Source: Jejubacter calystegiae (GTDB lineage Bacteria > Pseudomonadota > Gammaproteobacteria > Enterobacterales > Enterobacteriaceae). From it: a stretch of DNA of 64,000 bases. The stretch covers positions 4,464,001 through 4,528,000 of the forward strand of contig NZ_CP040428.1 of NCBI RefSeq assembly GCF_005671395.1, read 5' to 3'. The position numbers were made by a program, and so were the translations under genes. The notes beneath the pieces are model-generated. The model was not told the DNA's origin and made no database searches. It saw only the letters and a list, made by a program, of their open reading frames with translations. Shown in pieces: positions 548 to 7,774 of this stretch. Every line of letters begins with the position of its first letter. Position 1 is the first letter of the stretch.

Positions 548-1015
548 TTACTTCGTTGGGCCCTGTGCCATCTCCAGCCTGTACTCGTCAATAATATACT
601 GCATTGTTCCGAGACATTCCGCTGCCGCTGGGCCAGCCCTTTTAAGTGTCGGTTCCGCCTTCGCAAAATAGGCCTCAACCTGCATCGGCGTAAAATGGGC
701 CATAGCGGGTATGCTGCATATCACTGACATGCCGAAACGTTGTTGTAGGCGATCTGTTCTCTTTTCTAGCGGTGTGGTGGCGTTAATGACAGCTACAGGG
801 TCTTTAATCAACGCCATGCTGATAGCGGTAGTCAGTTCTTCCACTTGTTTAGCGTCAAGGATATCGCCGATACTATCAATCTTCTCTGGCAGCGCCTGGA
901 TCGTTTTCTGGTCTGCCTGTTCTACCTGTCGAAGGTAAGCATTCCATTCGCTTGACGGCGCCATACAAGATGTCGATACAATACAGGCGACCAGAACAAC
1001 GGCACGCCCGATCAC
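548..1015 (-). CDS. Probable lipoprotein, immunity partner of the Tlde1-like effector
   Basis: 155 residues. The N-terminus (MIGRAVVLVACIVSTSCMAP) is a short hydrophobic signal with a lipobox-like V-S-T-S-C, so the product is probably a periplasmic lipoprotein. The rest is mostly helical and charged with no recognised motif. Its ATG overlaps the stop of the upstream L,D-transpeptidase-like effector gene by 4 bases, a typical effector/immunity coupling. Tlde1 effectors act in the target periplasm and their cognate Tldi1 immunity proteins are periplasmic, so the predicted export fits. I infer the immunity role from position and localisation, not from sequence similarity. Confidence 0.65.
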   Translation of the reverse strand: MIGRAVVLVACIVSTSCMAPSSEWNAYLRQVEQADQKTIQALPEKIDSIGDILDAKQVEELTTAISMALIKDPVAVINATTPLEKRTDRLQQRFGMSVICSIPAMAHFTPMQVEAYFAKAEPTLKRAGPAAAECLGTMQYIIDEYRLEMAQGPTK

Positions 1016-1374
1016 CTGACCACCTCCAGAGTGGTATCTGTTGACTGGATTATTTTTCTGCGAATGTTTGGCCCCATGATTATGCAGCCTTCAGAAGCAA
1101 AACCAGGTACCGCTGGTGGTCTTTTTTCGCCATGAATACGGAACAGGGAACGCCCGAACCCCTCGCCTGAAACCTGAGTCAGGGTGATGGTCATCGGCCC
1201 CTTTGAATTTGTATAGCCACCAATGCGCCATGTTCCGCGAGGAATTGGCCCCATGCCTCTAACGTGCTGGCGGTCAGGGTTGTTTTGATTCGTCAAACTT
1301 CCCGAATAACCTTTACCTATTAATTTACCGTTGTGCCATAACTCGCCAGTACTCTGAGAGTATTTCCATGCCAT
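1012..1374 (-). CDS. Tlde1-like T6SS effector (DUF2778, L,D-transpeptidase fold)
   Basis: 120 residues, beginning MAWKYSQSTGELWHNGKLIGKGYSG, the usual opening of the DUF2778/Tlde1 family. The C-terminal half carries the catalytic arrangement of a conserved His (RIHGEK, about residue 89) and a conserved Cys (ASEGCIIMG, about residue 103), as in YkuD-like L,D-transpeptidases. Salmonella Tlde1 cleaves tetrapeptide stems and exchanges D-amino acids in target-cell peptidoglycan after type VI delivery. Here the gene sits 12 bases after an hcp gene and overlaps a probable immunity gene, consistent with Hcp-dependent delivery. No other T6SS structural gene is in the window, so it is an orphan cassette. 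Confidence 0.8.
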   Translation of the reverse strand: MAWKYSQSTGELWHNGKLIGKGYSGSLTNQNNPDRQHVRGMGPIPRGTWRIGGYTNSKGPMTITLTQVSGEGFGRSLFRIHGEKRPPAVPGFASEGCIIMGPNIRRKIIQSTDTTLEVVR

Positions 1375-1386
1375 ATGCCACGCTCC

Positions 1387-1878
1387 CTATGCTGCGCTAC
1401 GCCCTTTCCAGGAATCAGAATGGATAATATTACCGTCCAAATATTTCCAGGTGATTTTCTTGTACATCATTTCTAGTACTTCAAGATGTTCCTGGCGTTC
1501 GTAGGTAGGATCTTTAACATCTTCCATAATAGGCACAACACAGGTAATACGGGCGTTCTCAAGAAGCACGTTAAAATATTCCTCTTCCTGTCCGGCATTA
1601 TTAATTCGATAAAATTTAAGCTCTGCTGATTTTAAAAGCTTTCCTGAACTAACGAATTGATAAAGATAGGGGCTGGATGAGTCCAGCGCTTTGGTGAGGA
1701 TAAAAGGCGCATGTTCACGTGTCGCCGTTATCTTGCCGGACAGATCATCCGTAGGAAGTGATACATCGTGAGCCAGCGCAGTTATTTCTATGCTACCTTC
1801 GCGTTGCTGTATTTCTACAGAGCCTTTGACGGGGTTTCCGGCATCGTCCTTTAACCATAAATAAACAGGTATAGCCAT
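1387..1878 (-). CDS. hcp: Hcp-family T6SS tube protein
   Basis: 163 residues, starting MAIPVYLWLKDDAGNPVKGSVEI, the typical Hcp opening, and ending with the Hcp-like ITWKYLDGNIIHSDSW. Hcp hexamers stack into the tube expelled by type VI secretion and carry small effectors in the lumen. A strong AAAAAGGAG lies 9 bases before the ATG. The effector and immunity genes follow on the same strand with short spacing, so this is an hcp-effector-immunity operon. No sheath, baseplate or ATPase genes are present, so secretion would need a T6SS elsewhere in the genome. The relic at 320-493 shows a second hcp-effector unit once existed downstream. Confidence 0.85.
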   Translation of the reverse strand: MAIPVYLWLKDDAGNPVKGSVEIQQREGSIEITALAHDVSLPTDDLSGKITATREHAPFILTKALDSSSPYLYQFVSSGKLLKSAELKFYRINNAGQEEEYFNVLLENARITCVVPIMEDVKDPTYERQEHLEVLEMMYKKITWKYLDGNIIHSDSWKGRSAA

Positions 1879-2036
1879 TCAATGAACTCCTTTTTCGTAC
1901 CAGAGAGGATAATTATCGCCCTCCGTTCCTTTACAGATGAAACATCATTTGAGACTTTATTGACATAAATCAACTGAAAGCCCACCGGAATTACGGACAG
2001 GGGCCTTCAGCCCGACGTATGGTTATGCATCGATTA

Positions 2037-2426
2037 TCAATGTACCACCACGCCATGCAACCACAGCACCAGATAAACCATATCCGCCGTATCCGTCACC
2101 GTGATATACCAGCGAGGATGCTCATATTCCTCCGCATCCGGCCAACTTTCCTGGCCGCTGACAGTGATCAGTATATTCACTGCCCTGCGTAGCCGCCCTT
2201 CCACCGTCACGGCCGCGCAACTGCTTAATCCGACGCGATGGGGATGGCAGGTGATGGTGGTGGCGCCTGGCAGGCGCCGACGGATTTGTGCGTTCAGCCG
2301 TTGCAGATTCTCCCGGGTGGTGGCCGACACCCGGGGCTCGCCCTGCGGCGGCAGGGTGAACACGTTACCGTCAGGCAGAACCGGTACCGCTTCCGTCTGA
2401 GGCGCCGGATACTTCAGCGTCATCAT
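2037..2426 (-). CDS. Unrecognised ICE-associated protein
   Basis: 129 residues, no signal peptide or membrane segment. The N-terminal third is proline-rich (YPAPQTEAVPVLPDG). The rest is mixed, with two Cys (about residues 60 and 69) and a C-terminus HGVVVH. Its ATG overlaps the stop of the TraC-like ATPase fragment by 4 bases (ATGA), so it belongs to the conjugation operon. I do not recognise the family. It may be one of the small uncharacterised genes of the PAPI-1/ICEHin1056 transfer module. It appears intact, but with the operon disrupted it may not be useful. Confidence 0.5.
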   Translation of the reverse strand: MMTLKYPAPQTEAVPVLPDGNVFTLPPQGEPRVSATTRENLQRLNAQIRRRLPGATTITCHPHRVGLSSCAAVTVEGRLRRAVNILITVSGQESWPDAEEYEHPRWYITVTDTADMVYLVLWLHGVVVH

Positions 2427-3212
2427 GCAGCCTCCTGCTCAACGCTCAGGCCGCGCAGCCTGTCCAGCTTACGGGCCACCCGGACTGCCGCTTCCAGCTC
2501 ACTGCAGTGATGCTCCCGCATCAGCGCCCGGCGCTCCGCCTTCTCATCCTTCTCCGTCATACCCAGCGCCAGATACAGACTCGGCGGTACCGCCCGGAAC
2601 AGCGCCTCGATGCGTTTGGCCAGCACCACCCCTTCCGTATAGCAGCCGGACAGTTTACGGGCCGACAGCAGCACTGCCTCCTGCTCCGGCGTCAGTGCCC
2701 GGAACCGGCTGATATCCTTCACCTCCTCCGGCGGCATGGTGAGACAAATCCACCACTCCGCCATGTTCAGCATCTTCTCGGCAATATCCGGGTAGTCCTT
2801 CAGGTTCTGGGTGGCCAGCCACAGCCAGGCGCCCAGCTTACGCCACATCTTGACCACCCTGGTCATGTACGGCGACAGTAGCGGGTTGACCGTCACGATG
2901 TGCGCCTCATCCACGGCAAATACGATATCGCGGCCAAGATACTGGTCGCGCTCCGCGATGTTGTTAATCATGTTGGTCATCGAGACCATGGTCAGCGCCA
3001 TCTGCGCTTCATAGCCCTCACGGGCCAGGTGCCCCAGATCAATCAGCGTCACATCCGCTTCCGGCCACAGCTCGCCTTCACGGTTAAACAGCTCCGCCTC
3101 AAAGCTGCCGGACTGGGTGAACATGCCCAGCGCCTCCGCCATCTCTGCGGCTTTCGCCCGGCGTTGCGCGTTACGGACGGTGCCGCCTTCCTCCCCTTCA
3201 CCGGCGGCGATA
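2423..3212 (-). pseudogene. 3' fragment of ICE conjugative ATPase gene (TraC/VirB4-like, TIGR03744 type)
   Basis: About 260 residues read as the C-terminal part of a VirB4/TraC-type transfer ATPase: VTLIDLGHLA, a Walker-B-like IVFAVDEAHIV near the middle, then KLGAWLWLATQNLKDYP. The family is normally over 900 residues with an N-terminal Walker A, all missing here. Upstream of about position 3212 the frame becomes nonsense (out-of-frame reading of a RAQPRD-family gene), so the apparent 327-residue frame starting at 3406 is a fusion artefact. In related ICEs about seven transfer genes lie between RAQPRD and this ATPase, so an internal deletion is the likely cause. Non-functional for conjugation. 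Confidence 0.75.
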
Positions 3213-3437
3213 GTCAAAGAAGAAGCGCCCACGCTCTGCCGGATCGGCCTGAGTTGCGGCCACGCGCGCTCGCTCCAGCGAGGCCTGCATCTGATCCAAC
3301 TGACGCAGGACTGAGGCCAGTTCGTCTTTCTCGGCAACCCGGGTTGACGTTGATACGGATAAAGCGGCCAGTAACAGCAGGCTGATGATGCCCGGAATAC
3401 GGGCACCAGGGCGCCAGGCCGGACGGGATGAATTCAT
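3198..3437 (-). pseudogene. Truncated RAQPRD-family ICE protein
   Basis: 79 residues from the ATG at 3437 (GGAGGTG precedes it): a hydrophobic signal segment (GIISLLLLAALSVS) and a helical stretch ELASVLRQLDQMQASLERAR, ending RGRFFFDYRRR-stop. RAQPRD proteins (TIGR01690) of PAPI-1-type ICEs share this plan, with an F-D-Y motif followed by roughly 20 more residues. Here the frame runs into the 3' part of the TraC-like ATPase gene right after F-D-Y and stops. The gene is therefore cut by the same deletion that removed the ATPase N-terminus. Original function: periplasmic accessory factor of the mating apparatus (family knowledge). Confidence 0.7.
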
Positions 3438-3597
3438 ACACACCTCCACAGGAGTTAAAAAGGTGCGTACAGGATGTGCAGGACAGGAGGGACAGTCAGC
3501 GATAAACTCTTTTTGCGATTATGAAAATTTAAAGAAAGAAGAAATGCTTTTATTAGTAACTATCACTCATGATTATCATGAAGTTTTGAACATGAAT

Positions 3598-3630
3598 AAT
3601 AACAGGAGGGATAACATCCCTCCTGTTATT
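3598..3630 (-). terminator. Stem-loop ending the RiPP operon
   Basis: A perfect 14-bp inverted repeat (3598-3611 and 3617-3630, core AACAGGAGGGA) with a 5-base loop lies 34 bases after the stop of the last precursor gene. On the minus strand the following bases are AT-rich but not a clean T-run, so it may act as a terminator or an mRNA 3'-end stabiliser. Confidence 0.65.
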
Positions 3631-3663
3631 AATAAAGTTAATTTAGGATATACTCACTCACTA

Positions 3664-3828
3664 TTATGAAACAATGACCCCCCATTTCCCCCACACGACT
3701 GCTGGGCTCTCAATGGGAGGCAACTCCTCTAACTCATTGATCATTTCATTTAAAAACAAACCATCGTCCAATAATTCCGGTTTATCACACTGGTTCGTTA
3801 TTTCATTACATTTTTTTTCCGCATCCAT
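3664..3828 (-). CDS. RiPP precursor peptide, copy 4 of the tandem array
   Basis: 54 residues from the ATG at 3828, preceded by AAAAGGAGC. The leader is acidic (MDAEKKCNEITNQCDKPELL, then LFLNEMINELEELPPIES) and the C-terminus is PAVVWGKWGVIVS. It differs from copies 2 and 3 at only a few positions, two of them in the core (VVW and GVI instead of VLW and GAI). It is the last gene of the radical SAM / M50 operon and is followed by a 14-bp hairpin. I infer a ribosomally made, radical-SAM-modified peptide; cleavage probably falls in or after the LPPIES stretch. The chemistry of the modification cannot be read from sequence. Confidence 0.8.
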   Translation of the reverse strand: MDAEKKCNEITNQCDKPELLDDGLFLNEMINELEELPPIESPAVVWGKWGVIVS

Positions 3829-3862
3829 TTTTTTGCTCCTTTTGAAAGGTGATCACTCATTA

Positions 3863-4018
3863 TTATGAAACAATAGCCCCCCACTTTCCCCACAAAACAG
3901 CCGGACTCTCAATGGGGGGCAACTCCTCTAACTCATTGATCATTTCATTTAAAAACAAACCATCGTCCAATAATTCCGGTTTATCACACTGGTTCGTTAC
4001 ATTTTTTTCCGCATCCAT
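3863..4018 (-). CDS. RiPP precursor peptide, copy 3 of the tandem array
   Basis: 51 residues. The start is set at 4018, where AAAAGGAGC gives a good ribosome site and the N-terminus aligns with copies 2 and 4; an upstream in-frame ATG at 4045 is rejected. The leader reads MDAEKNVTNQCDKPELL. Compared with the neighbours it has lost 9 bases around the A-tract (7 As instead of 8, plus 8 bases), which keeps the frame and removes the first Cys. The core PAVLWGKWGAIVS is identical to copy 2. Loss of the leader Cys shows that residue is not essential if this copy is functional. Confidence 0.8.
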   Translation of the reverse strand: MDAEKNVTNQCDKPELLDDGLFLNEMINELEELPPIESPAVLWGKWGAIVS

Positions 4019-4051
4019 TTTTTGCTCCTTTTGAAAGGTGATCACTCATTA

Positions 4052-4216
4052 TTATGAAACAATAGCCCCCCACTTTCCCCACAAAACAGCCGGACTCTCA
4101 ATGGGGGGCAACTCCTCTAACTCATTGATCATTTCATTTAAAAACAAACCATCGTCCAATAATTCCGGTTTATCACACTGGTTCGTTATTTCATTACATT
4201 TTTTTTCCGCGTCCAT
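4052..4216 (-). CDS. RiPP precursor peptide, copy 2 of the tandem array
   Basis: 54 residues from the ATG at 4216, preceded by AAAAGGAGTG. Leader MDAEKKCNEITNQCDKPELL, acidic helix-forming middle (LNEMINELEEL), then PPIES and the core PAVLWGKWGAIVS. It is too short for ordinary gene callers. DNA identity to copies 3 and 4 extends through the ribosome binding site and spacer, so the array grew by recent tandem duplication of a unit of about 190-198 bases. It follows the divergent copy 1 by 34 bases in the same operon as the radical SAM and M50 genes. Confidence 0.8.
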   Translation of the reverse strand: MDAEKKCNEITNQCDKPELLDDGLFLNEMINELEELPPIESPAVLWGKWGAIVS

Positions 4217-4250
4217 CTTTTCACTCCTTTTGAAATGCAGTCACTCTCTA

Positions 4251-4406
4251 TTATGGAACCAAAAAACCCCACCTTCCCCATAGGCATGAAGGGCTTTCAA
4301 CTGGAGGAATTTCTTCCAGGTCCGAAATCTCCTTTTCAAAAACAGAGGCGCTGTCAAATACATCATCATCATCATCGAGTAAGGCAACTTGTTTAGCTTG
4401 TTTCAT
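4251..4406 (-). CDS. RiPP precursor peptide, divergent copy 1
   Basis: 51 residues from the ATG at 4406, with AAGGAG before it and only 13 bases after the M50 protease stop. The leader is different (MKQAKQVALLDDDDDVFDSA) and includes a GAT microsatellite coding five Asp. The second half aligns with the other three copies: E-x-x-x-LEE-x-PP-x-ESPSCLWGRWGFLVP. The conserved positions across all four are LEE, PP, ESP, then W-G-K/R-W-G and a hydrophobic pair before the last residue. This covariation is the main evidence that the W-G-K/R-W-G end is the functional core and that these are precursor peptides rather than chance frames. Confidence 0.8.
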   Translation of the reverse strand: MKQAKQVALLDDDDDVFDSASVFEKEISDLEEIPPVESPSCLWGRWGFLVP

Positions 4407-4419
4407 AAAAACTCCTTAA

Positions 4420-5154
4420 CTACATTTCAGATATATAGCCAAATAATAATAACAACCACACTATGGAAATAACAACCATTATTGCTACCTCCAACACCTT
4501 TATAAACGCATTTGTTTTCCTACTTAGATTCACCTTCAGAATCATACTATTCATTAATATATTATAACCATCATTTTTTATAATAGGGAGCGGTATCAAG
4601 TTAGATAATGTCATAAACAGCACTGGAGGAATTAAATAATTAAGTTCTTTTGCAAATACAGCAACCCCCCAACAAATAAAGATATTAATCAATATACCAG
4701 AATAACATACACACGCCCCTCTAAATCTTGACAGGATATATACATCTGACGTATCAACCTTTATCATTGGAAAAATAAGAAAAAAACTAACCCTAATTTT
4801 CCCAGATACACCACCAAAAAAACGCAATACAGAAATATGTGCAATCTCATGAAAAACAACATTCCCCATAAGAAACAAAAAAGCAAGGCAGGCCTGCAAA
4901 TTTGAATGTGGAACATCATAATTTATACTCATTAATTGTATTAACATATATATTGAAAGAAATATCAAAAGCAAGAAAACAATATCACTATAACCAAATC
5001 TAATGACTCTTGCAGTGATATCATAATTTCTCCTTGAGAAATAAAACTTCCGCTTATAGTAAAATGTATTATTACTACAATCTTTGATATAACAATCTCC
5101 ATTCTTATTTTCAAGAATGATAAATTTACCGAAATTAAAAAGAAGATCCGCCAT
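4420..5154 (-). CDS. M50-family membrane metalloprotease of the RiPP operon (YydH-like)
   Basis: 244 residues using the ATG at 5154, which has a GGGGGG ribosome site; the in-frame ATG at 5193 lies inside the radical SAM gene and lacks one. A hydrophobic segment spans about residues 57-76. The zinc motif H-E-I-A-H is at 102-106 inside a second hydrophobic stretch, two further membrane segments follow (about 150-168 and 172-192), with N-L-I-P...N-D-G at 185-196, the second-ligand motif of site-2-type proteases, and a last segment near 220-241. All catalytic residues are present. The start overlaps the radical SAM stop by 20 bases (translational coupling). By analogy with Bacillus YydH it probably cleaves the modified precursor at the membrane; inferred from context. 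It is visibly AT-rich compared with the neighbouring ICE genes. Confidence 0.8.
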   Translation of the reverse strand: MADLLFNFGKFIILENKNGDCYIKDCSNNTFYYKRKFYFSRRNYDITARVIRFGYSDIVFLLLIFLSIYMLIQLMSINYDVPHSNLQACLAFLFLMGNVVFHEIAHISVLRFFGGVSGKIRVSFFLIFPMIKVDTSDVYILSRFRGACVCYSGILINIFICWGVAVFAKELNYLIPPVLFMTLSNLIPLPIIKNDGYNILMNSMILKVNLSRKTNAFIKVLEVAIMVVISIVWLLLLFGYISEM

Positions 5155-6103
5155 ACACCCCCCTTTTCGATAATAAAAAACCAATTCTTTCATCTATATA
5201 CTTTTTTGTTTTAATAACATTACTCGGAGAAAACAACAAACCACACAACTCACAAACATTCACAACTTTACTTGGTATTTTTATATCCGTATTCTCTTTA
5301 ACCCATAAAACAAAATCACCCATGCATTCATTTCTCAATAAATACAATGCAGAATTATTCTTTAATTTATAAAGAGCCGAGTGTAAATTTATATCATAAA
5401 AATTCCCAACGTTCAGAACAGAGTCAAATATAGTTTGAGAACAACATGGATATATATTCCCATCATAGGAAACAACAAAGCTTGAACCATAATGACATCG
5501 TGTTTTCCCAGGAGTGACTTTCCTATCAAAATCATCAAGGGAGAAAGTTTTACTTGCTCCGCCTACCGGCAAACAAGGTATAATATTCACAGGAATATTA
5601 TTTAAATCTTCAGCCATTTTGTCTATCAGGTCACCAATTTTTTCATTTTTTATTTTAACCAGTGACACATCACAATTGAGACCTATCTCATTGCACGCCT
5701 TCAGGACATTATTAACACACTCCGTCTCAACATACTTACTATGATAATTATCATGGCTTACTGTTAACTTAACAACACCATTTTCCTTTAGTTCACTTAA
5801 CCTATCAAGAGCTTTATTATAGCTCGCTGCCCAATAGCCATTAGTGATGGTTCTTACTCGTTTACCACAATCTTTTGCAAGAGCACACAAATCTAATAAT
5901 TTCCTATACTCTAAAAATGGCTCCCCTCCGGTGAAAGATACATCTGTAATACAAGAAATTTCTTTTGACTCAATAACATACTTTCTAATTCTATTGATGT
6001 CCAGGCGTTCTACACTTTCTGGATTAGATTCAAAGCAACACATCGCACAAGACGCATTACATTTTTTGTGTAAAACAAAAACCATGTTTTTATATATACA
6101 CAT
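5135..6103 (-). CDS. Radical SAM peptide maturase (YydG-like epimerase or C-C crosslinking enzyme)
   Basis: 322 residues from the ATG at 6103, chosen because AAGGGA lies 7 bases upstream; longer in-frame starts (to 6181, GTG) have no ribosome site. The [4Fe-4S]/SAM motif C-N-A-S-C-A-M-C is at residues 15-22, immediately followed by another Cys and Phe, and G-G-E-P is at 59-62. A C-terminal Cys set (TRCHYG, YPCCSQ, NECMG, CELCG) suggests auxiliary-cluster or catalytic thiols. Length and the CNASC..CCF signature resemble Bacillus YydG, which epimerises Val and Ile in YydF; that is recollection, not a search. Substrates are presumably the four peptides encoded downstream. First gene of the operon, with no transporter adjacent. 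Confidence 0.8.
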   Translation of the reverse strand: MCIYKNMVFVLHKKCNASCAMCCFESNPESVERLDINRIRKYVIESKEISCITDVSFTGGEPFLEYRKLLDLCALAKDCGKRVRTITNGYWAASYNKALDRLSELKENGVVKLTVSHDNYHSKYVETECVNNVLKACNEIGLNCDVSLVKIKNEKIGDLIDKMAEDLNNIPVNIIPCLPVGGASKTFSLDDFDRKVTPGKTRCHYGSSFVVSYDGNIYPCCSQTIFDSVLNVGNFYDINLHSALYKLKNNSALYLLRNECMGDFVLWVKENTDIKIPSKVVNVCELCGLLFSPSNVIKTKKYIDERIGFLLSKRGVYGGSSF

Positions 6104-6298: not shown

Positions 6299-7063
6299 TT
6301 ACAGGTACTTTTTAAATGACGCGGTGGTCACCGTAATCGCCGTTCCCAGCAAAATCGCAGCCGGCAGCAATAGCAGGTTGGGATACACTGCCGTTGGCCA
6401 GGAGAGGTACAACATCACCGGCACCACCACTGCTGGCCTCACCATTTTTTTGGCATGGTGATAAACAAACGAACTCTCATAACCGGCACCATAACGAGGC
6501 AGATCGCGCCGCCCCAGCCCCTCGACCAGCGCTACCAGCACCGCCATGGCAAACAACGGCAGTGACAGCGCCAGAATCGTCACCCGGATCAGGGTGATTA
6601 TCGTGACCCACACCGTGGCCATCAGATATTCATGCAGATACCCGGCGAGCCATCCGCTCCAGCCACTCAACTGGCGGGTCAGTTCATTATCACTGCCCAT
6701 CTGCAGTGCATACTGCTGCTGTATCCAGTCCGTGACACCGCTGTTCACAAACAGCCACTGATATGCTGTCGTCATCCAGTTGACGACCGTCACCGAGGGG
6801 GTTGACAACAGCAGGCTGCGGGTGAACTCCGTGGACAACCAGCCCAGCTCAGTATTCATCACTGCTTCACTGTGCGCCGCGCCGGCTTCCGGCCAGAAAA
6901 AGGCGATCCCGATATACTCCATAAGCAGGCTCAGCATCAGAGACCCCAGCAGCATACCGAACAGCGCCCACAGCCAGCCCCAGAGCAGGTTATACAGCAG
7001 GCCATGCGCTTTCTCTCTCTCCTGCCGGGCCGGCGTCCGGGTATCCCGTTGTGGCTCAGCCAT
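6299..7063 (-). CDS. ICE membrane protein, TIGR03747 type
   Basis: 254 residues from the ATG at 7063, preceded by GGAGGCGATC. Four hydrophobic stretches (LLWGWLWALFGMLLGSL near the N-terminus; ATVWVTIITLIRV; FAMAVLVALVEGL; LLLLPAAILLGTAI near the C-terminus) and the conserved HHAKKMVRPAVVVPVMLYLSWP mark the TIGR03747 family of PAPI-1/ICEHin1056-type elements. In intact elements it follows the coupling protein TraD and precedes RAQPRD. Here the upstream neighbour is a truncated parA and the RiPP operon separates it from RAQPRD. The gene looks complete but stranded. Confidence 0.75.
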   Translation of the reverse strand: MAEPQRDTRTPARQEREKAHGLLYNLLWGWLWALFGMLLGSLMLSLLMEYIGIAFFWPEAGAAHSEAVMNTELGWLSTEFTRSLLLSTPSVTVVNWMTTAYQWLFVNSGVTDWIQQQYALQMGSDNELTRQLSGWSGWLAGYLHEYLMATVWVTIITLIRVTILALSLPLFAMAVLVALVEGLGRRDLPRYGAGYESSFVYHHAKKMVRPAVVVPVMLYLSWPTAVYPNLLLLPAAILLGTAITVTTASFKKYL

Positions 7064-7075
7064 GATCGCCTCCAT

Positions 7076-7750
7076 TCAGTCCAGCTTCCGACTATTCAGT
7101 GCCGAACTGTCATATTTTTTCTGGCTGATAATGTTGGAAAGACTTTCCATCGCTTCACGATCGAGAAGCGTATTTTCAATGCAGTTAATAAGAATCGAGA
7201 TATCCGGCAGATGAATACCGTAGATTTCATAGGTTTTCAGGCGGGTGAACATATGGAGGGAGCCACGAATAAACTCGCGAACGTCAGGAAGAATAGGCTT
7301 CACTATTCCCATCACATTGCCAGTTGATGACAATATCGACAGTTCGGTCATGACGCCTGTAGCCCCTTTGGAGTCCACAATAATGAGGTCGTAGCGGGAA
7401 AATGAAGGATTCTGAAGAATATTTCTCAGTCGCAGGCGCCCATCAGCAGCATGTAGCATTGCGGTGGGCAACAATTCATCGGGGTCGTTGGAGTAGACAA
7501 TATCAAGGTTATTGATTGACGCTCGTGAAATCGCCTGCAGCGGGTCCGGGACCATCTGCATCAACAATTCATAAAGGCCAAACGGTGCCTCTTCGCTCAA
7601 AGAGAAGATACTGCTGGCCGTAGGCTGGGACCAGTCTGCATCAATCAGGAGGGTTTTCAGGCCTGCATCTGCACAGAAATCGGCCGGGTAAGCAGCAAAG
7701 GTTGACTTACCTTCACCACCTTTCGGAGATATAACGGGGAGTATTTTCAT
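7076..7750 (-). pseudogene. 3'-truncated ICE parA/soj
   Basis: About 224 residues from the ATG at 7750. The Walker-type motif is K-G-G-E-G-K-S-T, typical of ICE Soj proteins of the PAPI-1 group, followed by LKTLLIDADWSQPTASSIF and a Walker B-like YDLIIVDSKGATG. ICE Soj is normally nearer 290 residues; this one ends ...NSRKLD immediately before the ribosome site of the TIGR03747 gene, so its C-terminus was lost in a deletion that removed everything normally lying between parA and traD. In these ICEs soj is the first gene inside the tRNA-proximal attachment site, which matches its place next to tRNA-Leu. It is called a pseudogene because the fold is incomplete. Confidence 0.7.
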
Positions 7751-7752
7751 TC

Positions 7753-7774
7753 TGCACACTCATAAAAGTGTGCA
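7753..7774. promoter_or_regulatory. Inverted repeat at the parA start
   Basis: Perfect 8-bp inverted repeat TGCACACT / AGTGTGCA with a 6-base centre, ending 3 bases before the parA ATG. A candidate autoregulatory or partition site for ParA; no experimental support. Confidence 0.5.

What the first reader, a model, noticed from the sequence alone, without database searches (positions are those of the whole stretch)
3598..6103. Unrecognised RiPP operon: radical SAM enzyme, M50 protease and four tandem W-G-K/R-W-G precursors
Seen: a minus-strand operon encoding a 322-residue radical SAM protein (C-N-A-S-C-A-M-C, GGEP), an overlapping 244-residue M50 protease (HEIAH, NDG), and four 51-54-residue peptides, each with its own ribosome site, ending in a 14-bp hairpin. 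All four share L-E-E, P-P, E-S-P, then W-G-K/R-W-G and a hydrophobic tail. Known: Bacillus yydFGH pairs a precursor, a radical SAM epimerase and an M50 protease (epipeptide); streptococcal WGK RiPPs have a Trp-Lys carbocycle on a W-G-K motif; W-x-x cyclophanes are another option. Inferred: an enterobacterial RiPP family with D-Val/D-Ile or Trp-centred crosslinks. The tandem precursor array, the core and the ICE setting differ from yyd.
Basis: partly seen in the sequence, partly recalled or inferred. Interest (0 to 1): 0.95.

Follow-up and report, generated by a model that had tools for sequence, protein, structure and literature searches.

The report
Epipeptide-like operon with four precursors
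An enterobacterial chromosome carries, inside a decayed mobile element, an intact operon of one radical-SAM enzyme, one M50-type protease and four short peptide genes, which likely makes an antibacterial peptide in which valine, leucine or isoleucine residues would be flipped to their mirror-image form, a chemistry known from the Bacillus epipeptide.

Summary
In detail: a minus-strand operon encodes a radical SAM enzyme (322 aa), an overlapping M50-type protease (244 aa) and four tandem precursors (51, 54, 51, 54 aa), closed by a hairpin. The enzyme is closest to the Bacillus epimerase YydG/EpeE in sequence (PDB E 1.7e-45; TIGR04078 217 bits, cut-off 300) and predicted fold (TM 0.89, next 0.58), and keeps its hydrogen-donor Cys. 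I found 22 more precursors of this family outside the genome. Ten of 34 non-self enzyme hits share a contig length with one. Of 44 fetched loci with a relative, the four with near-full-length identity of 39.5% or more all have enzyme, protease, precursor in that order; none of the other 40 has such a precursor. Twelve of 26 distinct precursors lack W-G-K/R, so a Trp-Lys crosslink is unlikely as the common chemistry. What is conserved is E-S, then aliphatic-x-Gly, which resembles D-Ile-Leu-Gly of YydF. Best reading: a sister class of epipeptides, with epimerisation predicted at residue 45 and at an aliphatic near the C-terminus; no transporter was recognised beside it here or in Proteus. The curated epipeptide models and gene order are not met: a new variant rather than a member.

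The parts
5135..6103 (-). Radical SAM enzyme, 322 aa, likely peptide epimerase of a clade related to YydG/EpeE
   Evidence: PDB YydG/EpeE E 1.7e-45; TIGR04078 217 bits; fold TM 0.89 to EpeE; C221 aligned with EpeE C223
4420..5154 (-). M50-type metalloprotease, 244 aa, HEIAH and NDG; likely leader removal and release
   Evidence: NF058609 YydH/LiaK family 64.1 bits, E 1.5e-17, below cut-off 225; H102, E103, H106, D195 invariant in 8 aligned homologues; several hydrophobic segments
4251..4406 (-). Precursor copy 1 (leader type A), 51 aa, core ESPSCLWGRWGFLVP
4052..4216 (-). Precursor copy 2 (leader type B), 54 aa, core ESPAVLWGKWGAIVS
3863..4018 (-). Precursor copy 3 (leader type B), 51 aa, same core as copy 2
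3664..3828 (-). Precursor copy 4 (leader type B), 54 aa, core ESPAVVWGKWGVIVS; leader near-identical to copy 2, core diverged
3597..3631 (-). Terminator-like hairpin, 16-pair stem, at the end of the operon
   Evidence: also found as an inverted repeat
6299..7075 (-). TIGR03747 integrating conjugative element membrane protein, upstream flank of the cargo slot
   Evidence: 308.2 bits, cut-off 138.5
2423..3449 (-). Remnant of ICE transfer genes: start of a RAQPRD gene overlapping in another frame the last part of a VirB4-type ATPase (TIGR03744, profile 654-892 of 892), downstream flank

Best explanation
This operon encodes an epipeptide-like RiPP pathway: the radical SAM enzyme is likely a peptide epimerase that would turn one or two aliphatic L-residues of each precursor core into D-residues, after which the membrane protease would cut off the leader and release a short, predicted membrane-active antibacterial peptide. 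The steps (all inferred, none shown at the bench) are as follows. A 5'-deoxyadenosyl radical removes the alpha-hydrogen of a Val, Leu or Ile, and Cys221 gives a hydrogen back from the other face. The first site is predicted to be the aliphatic residue two before the invariant Gly (V45 in copy 4, Leu in copies 1-3). The second would be an aliphatic near the C-terminus (I52 in copy 4, the corresponding Ile or Leu in the others). The M50-type protease then cuts near the conserved E-S-P. In B. subtilis the same type of protease is thought to do both cutting and export, so the lack of a neighbouring transporter need not block release. The four precursors have three distinct cores and would yield up to three products.
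For: Enzyme: YydG/EpeE is the best PDB match by sequence (E 1.7e-45, next other protein 7.5e-4). TIGR04078 gives 217.2 bits against 41.3 for the next NCBIfam model. The AlphaFold model (pLDDT 92.6) matches EpeE at TM 0.89 and rmsd 1.8-2.1; SkfB follows at 0.58 and the streptide-type SuiB has 0.57. C221 aligns with EpeE C223, the hydrogen donor (donor role from PMC5682303 passages). C203, C220, C221, C284 and C287 are conserved in 22 of 22 sequences that span YydG and this clade. Partner: best family hit of the protease is YydH/LiaK. Substrate: 24 precursors found, 22 outside this genome. Gene order enzyme, protease, precursor in 4 of 4 loci with near-full-length enzyme identity of 39.5-49%, against no such precursor in the other 40 of 44 loci scanned. 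Core geometry: E-S to Gly 7 residues in 24 of 26 distinct precursors and 8 in two; the residue two before the Gly is V, L or I in 25 of 26 (P0056 re-read by eye because the script caught an upstream ES). YydF has D-Ile-Leu-Gly and D-Val in WYFV (PMC7026026 passages), and three relatives have W[IV]AGS. The C. polysaccharolyticum core CILGSWFFVYK carries both motif types in swapped order. Selection: copies 2 and 4 differ in 9 codons from 37 to 51, 7 of them synonymous.
Against: The enzyme, protease and precursor models of the known family are not passed (217 of 300, 64 of 225, no hit). EpeE D210, mutated by its crystallographers, is Glu in three canonical relatives but Ser here and Asn in 23 of 30 of A1. 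Gene order differs, and no transporter or immunity pair was recognised next to the operon. The predicted D-sites rest on very short motifs. Ten of 26 precursors carry a Cys just before the aliphatic, so another fate of the radical in those is conceivable. Deleting the Bacillus protease did not abolish its peptide (PMC10885120 passages), so its part in release is not settled even there. One study saw no differential effect of the mature Bacillus peptide on two E. coli strains (PMC10043022 passages). No chemistry, expression or activity was measured here.
Confidence: 0.75

Rival explanations
1. A tryglysin-like or cyclophane RiPP: the enzyme would crosslink Trp with Lys/Arg or another residue in W-G-K/R-W-G.
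For: All four precursors and 14 of 26 distinct family members contain WG[KR]. Streptococcal WGK peptides carry Lys-Trp links (PMC13361665 passages). The core ESPAFIWGKWNFAGS is nearly frozen in 9 precursors with diverged leaders (96% against 35% mean identity), so W, G and K matter in that branch.
Against: 12 of 26 lack WG[KR]; the first Trp is I, L, V or C, the Lys/Arg is S, T or P, the second Trp is Y, F or G elsewhere, and one precursor of the 81%-identical relative has Cys for the first Trp (P0057, ESPAIVCGKWGCLVS). The WgkB model is not among the best 25 for the window enzyme and gives 25.0, 25.4 and 48.4 bits for L002, L004 and L005, against 188-230 for YydG. The fold is EpeE-like.
Confidence: 0.12
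2. A Cys-dependent product such as a sactipeptide: the alpha-carbon radical is trapped by a Cys of the peptide.
For: 10 of 26 distinct precursors have Cys three before the Gly, copy 1 here among them. AlbA and YydG share alpha-hydrogen abstraction (PMC5682303 passages).
Against: Copies 2-4 have no Cys in the core, nor do the 9 frozen-core precursors. The enzyme's own donor Cys is invariant in 22 of 22.
Confidence: 0.05
3. The peptides are epimerised but serve as signals (for example control of the mobile element or of the population) and not as antibacterials.
For: The operon sits in a mobile element cargo slot. The nearly frozen core of one branch fits a receptor-bound ligand. No adjacent immunity gene was recognised.
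Against: No regulator was noticed in the operon. The Bacillus peptide made by the same enzyme type kills by membrane damage (PMC7026026 passages). The element has lost transfer genes, yet the operon is intact.
Confidence: 0.12
4. A decaying passenger with no product today.
For: The surrounding ICE is a remnant. In a sample of 394 genomes of the order only this one has the enzyme at E <= 1e-20.
Against: All six reading frames are intact with ribosome sites. Seven of nine changed codons between copies 2 and 4 (codons 37-51) are synonymous. An 81% relative keeps the enzyme and two leader types.
Confidence: 0.06

Closest known systems
Epipeptide system yydFGHIJ / epeXEPAB of Bacillus subtilis (YydF core WYFV(D)KSKENRWI(D)LGSGH)
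   Same: Radical SAM enzyme with EpeE fold and donor Cys, overlapping M50-type protease, short precursor with hydrophobic C-terminal core and an aliphatic-x-Gly site
   Different: Precursors come last and in tandem (first and single in yyd and in L048, L049, L059); different precursor family; no adjacent ABC pair recognised here; enzyme and protease score below the curated cut-offs; the D210 position is Ser here, Asn in most relatives
Tryglysin (WGK) family of streptococci
   Same: W-G-K/R in the core of 14 of 26 distinct precursors
   Different: WGK not conserved in the family; the enzyme is not WgkB-like; Rgg/SHP control not looked for
Proteusins with radical SAM epimerases (PoyD type)
   Same: D-Val/D-Ile chemistry on a peptide
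   Different: [quoted passage not shown] I did not compare them here

Membership tests
Epipeptide (YydF/EpeX) system | Radical SAM enzyme passes TIGR04078 | tested here: not met
   217.2 bits against cut-off 300; canonical control from L059 gave 492.8
Epipeptide (YydF/EpeX) system | EpeE fold | tested here: met
   TM 0.89 to 8ai1/8ai6, next 0.58
Epipeptide (YydF/EpeX) system | Hydrogen-donor Cys (EpeE C223) and cluster cysteines | tested here: met
   C221 and C203, C220, C284, C287 in 22 of 22
Epipeptide (YydF/EpeX) system | Acidic residue at EpeE position 210 | tested here: not met
   Ser in the window; Asn in 23 of 30 of A1; Glu in 3 of 3 canonical relatives of A4
Epipeptide (YydF/EpeX) system | Protease passes NF058609 (YydH/LiaK) | tested here: not met
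   64.1 bits, cut-off 225, though it is the best hit
Epipeptide (YydF/EpeX) system | Precursor passes TIGR04077 | tested here: not met
   Not hit by any of the four window precursors at E <= 1; control from L059 84.1 bits, cut-off 35
Epipeptide (YydF/EpeX) system | Gene order precursor, enzyme, protease, ABC pair | tested here: not met
   Window and L002-L005: enzyme, protease, precursor. ABC genes upstream in L003 and L004 and downstream in L005; none recognised near the window operon or in L002
Epipeptide (YydF/EpeX) system | D-amino acids in the product | not testable with these tools
   needs mass spectrometry and chiral analysis
Tryglysin (WGK) | WGK conserved in the core | tested here: not met
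   12 of 26 distinct precursors lack WG[KR]
Tryglysin (WGK) | WgkB-type enzyme (NF050035) | tested here: not met
   not among the best 25 of 40 NCBIfam models listed for the window enzyme; 25.0, 25.4 and 48.4 bits for L002, L004, L005, cut-off 650
Tryglysin (WGK) | Rgg/SHP control | not tested
   no search made
Sactipeptide | Cys in the core as acceptor | tested here: not met
   none in the cores of copies 2-4; copy 1 has one
Functional integrative conjugative element | complete transfer genes | tested here: not met
   RAQPRD truncated and VirB4 only its last part; TraD, which precedes TIGR03747 in two E. coli ICEs, is replaced by a ParA-like gene

The most novel reading that the evidence does not exclude
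A second class of epipeptides, found from Lachnospiraceae and Enterococcaceae to enterobacteria, in which the two epimerised modules of YydF are used in swapped order around an invariant central Gly (aliphatic-x-Gly first, aromatic-x-x-aliphatic last). In the two enterobacterial loci it is pared down to enzyme, protease and peptide, with the protease as the sole dedicated export device, and here it makes a cocktail of D-residue peptides from a tandem array whose leaders are homogenised while the cores diverge.
Probability: 0.4. Interest if true: 0.75.

Novelty: new variant of a known kind. Interest (0 to 1): 0.6.

Why it matters
Epipeptides were described in the papers seen here from Firmicutes (passages of PMC8326336 and PMC7614699). 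A related pathway in an enterobacterium and in Proteus would show that this simple chemistry, a change of stereochemistry with no change of mass and therefore easy to miss, has crossed to bacteria with an outer membrane. It also gives a precursor family that none of the NCBIfam models hit at a meaningful score, a tightly constrained core that tells which residues to test, and a natural array of substrates for asking how a radical SAM epimerase picks its sites.

Tried and rejected
Rejected: WGK-type crosslink as the common chemistry, and a sactipeptide (see rivals). Rejected as kin: L047 (Pseudomonadota, E 1.4e-41), which by eye is another system with a different peptide. A scan of all 44 loci found the ESP core only in L002-L005; L006 (Nocardiopsis, 27% identity) has an HExxH protein next to the enzyme but no ESP precursor, and the other 39 have neither within the limits of the script. 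L029 has 40% identity but over 140 residues only. At L069-L072 (six enzyme genes, 26-37%) no ESP precursor was found; a looser pattern picked three small ORFs (in L069, L071, L073) that I judged chance because they lack the ESP and the hydrophobic tail. L073 has a protease and a different possible precursor ending WLILTPSWFVVSK. A search for an exact repeat (12 bases or more) of the tRNA-Leu 3' end in about 28 kb to the left found none. Viral contigs gave two weak partial matches; phage records gave none to the 81% relative P0002 (the window enzyme itself was not run there). Plasmids gave only distant relatives, best 32%. E. coli genomes gave no near match to the operon DNA. The first genome-contig scan found nothing and the second used the alignment.

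Literature: no report of an epipeptide in a Gram-negative bacterium or of the ESP precursors was seen in searches (listings, often capped). The library holds open papers only. Benjdia 2017 and Popp 2021 are not held and the EpeE structure paper was not looked up by id, so novelty is not proven. Passages only were seen of PMC8326336, PMC5682303, PMC7026026, PMC9576775, PMC7614699, PMC10043022, PMC10885120, PMC12871923 and PMC13361665. All others were seen as listings.

Changed on checking: ribosome-site spacing, distance to uvrC, number of products, GC flanks, and the added full scan.
Full report
What is there. The minus strand of 3597-6103 holds six intact genes in one direction: a radical SAM enzyme (322 aa), an M50-type protease (244 aa, start overlapping the end of the enzyme gene by 20 bp), and four short peptides of 51, 54, 51 and 54 aa, then a hairpin with a 16-pair stem. 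The stretch 3501-6000 is 29-38% GC, against 59-62% in 2001-3500 and 6501-7000. The chromosome is enterobacterial: uvrC, which begins 2.8 kb from the operon, is 77.8% identical to that of E. coli over its full length.

The setting. Upstream lies a TIGR03747 membrane protein of integrative conjugative elements. Downstream lies the start of a RAQPRD gene that overlaps, in another frame, the last part of a VirB4-type ATPase. In two E. coli elements the slot between TIGR03747 and RAQPRD holds other cargo (an FxLYD gene; a Panacea-domain gene with two hypotheticals), and in the one shown as far as VirB4 the genes between RAQPRD and VirB4 are present. So the operon sits in a cargo slot of an element that has lost transfer genes, while the operon itself is intact.

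The enzyme. Sequence search of solved structures gives YydG/EpeE at E 1.7e-45, everything else at 7.5e-4 or worse. NCBIfam gives TIGR04078 (YydG peptide epimerase) at 217 bits, under its cut-off of 300 but far over the second model at 41. The AlphaFold model (pLDDT 92.6) superposes on EpeE at TM 0.89; SkfB follows at 0.58. In the printed alignment two EpeE entries, 8ai6 (D210A by its title) and 8ai1, differ at chain position 235, which fixes the numbering offset at 25. EpeE C223, the hydrogen donor, then falls on C221 of the window enzyme. C203, C220, C221, C284 and C287 are invariant in 22 of 22 sequences spanning both clades. I infer that four of them hold the auxiliary cluster and leave C221 free. 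One difference counts against a simple identity: position 210 is Glu in three canonical relatives but Ser here and Asn in 23 of the 30 sequences of A1.

Relatives. Of 35 protein hits, one is the window's own, one is 81% identical (122 kb contig, organism not told) and the others are 34-51%. In a sample of 394 genomes of the same order only this one matches at E <= 1e-20. In a sample of 349 of the phylum the only other match at E <= 1e-40 is a different system. In 20 genomes of the genus of Proteus myxofaciens one matches. In 392 genomes of the order of C. polysaccharolyticum five match at E <= 1e-60, of which one has the ESP set. In 395 genomes of the order of the Enterococcaceae locus two match, one of ESP type and one canonical yyd. 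A tree of 45 enzymes separates the three canonical YydG from the 15 ESP-linked enzymes by a supported branch (100/98; 27 ungrouped rows not counted). The window and its 81% relative form their own long branch, the deeper order is not resolved, and long branches (among them L006 and P0035) make parts unsafe. The low GC content and the named relatives outside the enterobacteria, which are Bacillota, suggest horizontal gain (inference; most hits are unnamed).

The precursors. A single-sequence search found only the window's own peptide. A profile of eight found 24 proteins, 22 from elsewhere. Among the 44 loci fetched by enzyme similarity, the four with near-full-length identity of 39.5-49% (Proteus myxofaciens, an Enterococcaceae MAG, Clostridium polysaccharolyticum, a Clostridiales MAG) show enzyme, protease, precursor in that order; none of the other 40 has an ESP core and one has an HExxH protein beside the enzyme. 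None of the seven genes of 26-37% identity at five further loci has such a precursor. E35, E40, S41 and G47 are invariant in 28 aligned rows, 26 of them distinct. The Gly is 7 residues after E-S in 24 of 26 (8 in two) and followed by exactly 7 residues in 23 of 26 (8 in two, 15 in one).

Which chemistry. W46, K48 and W49 vary (I, L, V, C; R, S, T, P; Y, F, G), and 12 of 26 lack WG[KR]. The 81% relative has both WGKWG and CGKWG. A Trp-Lys link therefore is unlikely to be the common product. What is common is an aliphatic residue two before the Gly (25 of 26). YydF is epimerised at Ile in W-I-L-G and at Val in W-Y-F-V, and three canonical relatives read W-I/V-A-G-S. The C. polysaccharolyticum core CILGSWFFVYK has an ILGS and a WFFV in the reverse order. 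I therefore predict D-residues at position 45 and near 52. This rests on short motifs and is an inference.

The array. Copies 2-4 share a leader type and copy 1 another; the 81% relative has one of each (P0050, P0057), so the two types are likely older than the triplication. Copies 2 and 4 differ at 1 of the first 109 and 10 of the last 56 bases (Fisher p 9e-5, split chosen after looking). Seven of the nine changed codons from 37 to 51 are synonymous. This fits homogenised leaders with an older, conserved core (inference). Nine precursors elsewhere share a nearly identical core (96% mean identity) with leaders of 35% mean identity.

How it would work. Epimerisation by the enzyme, leader removal and release by the protease, action on membranes. 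In B. subtilis EpeP is thought to do both cutting and export, although its deletion did not abolish the peptide, and EpeAB gives immunity (PMC10885120 and PMC12871923 passages). LiaIH, whose LiaH is a phage-shock protein, is the main protection. The window's genome has a PspA gene, as E. coli does; that it protects the producer is a guess. No ABC pair was recognised beside the window operon or in the Proteus locus; ABC genes stand next to the operon in L003, L004 and L005. One study found no differential effect of the mature Bacillus peptide on two E. coli strains, so action on Gram-negative targets is open.

Verdict. A real RiPP operon of epipeptide type that fails the curated tests of the known family: a new variant, with the chemistry predicted and not shown.

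Noticed in passing
window 548-1878, minus strand: A type VI secretion tube protein (Hcp, TIGR03344 143 bits), a Tlde1-domain protein and a small unknown gene that could be its immunity partner, about 1.7 kb beyond the operon end: a second likely competition module.
   Followed up: partly
window 2423-3449 and 7076-7759, minus strand: The conjugative element is a remnant: the RAQPRD start overlaps the VirB4 end, and a ParA-like gene directly precedes TIGR03747 where TraD stands in two E. coli elements.
   Followed up: partly
window 3664-4216, minus strand: Precursor copies 2 and 4 are a mosaic: near-identical leaders, diverged cores with mostly synonymous changes.
   Followed up: partly
L003 8132-10857: Directly after the Enterococcaceae operon lie what look by eye like a response regulator, a sensor kinase and an AgrB-like protein, that is, possible quorum control (not scanned against families).
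   Followed up: no
L073 4124-5987 (L053 433-2463): A 30%-identical enzyme with a protease and a different possible precursor ending WLILTPSWFVVSK: maybe a third precursor class.
   Followed up: partly
L006 3318-5028: Nocardiopsis has a 27%-identical enzyme directly followed by an HExxH protein, with no ESP precursor: perhaps an actinobacterial relative with another peptide.
   Followed up: no
L071 3915-5910; L072 2053-5045: Two distant YydG-like radical SAM genes close together at each locus, without the protease beside them or an ESP precursor.
   Followed up: no
L047 1411-2484: A Pseudomonadota radical SAM protein that matches the enzyme profile (E 1.4e-41), beside a second shorter ORF and a long partly masked one.
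   Followed up: no
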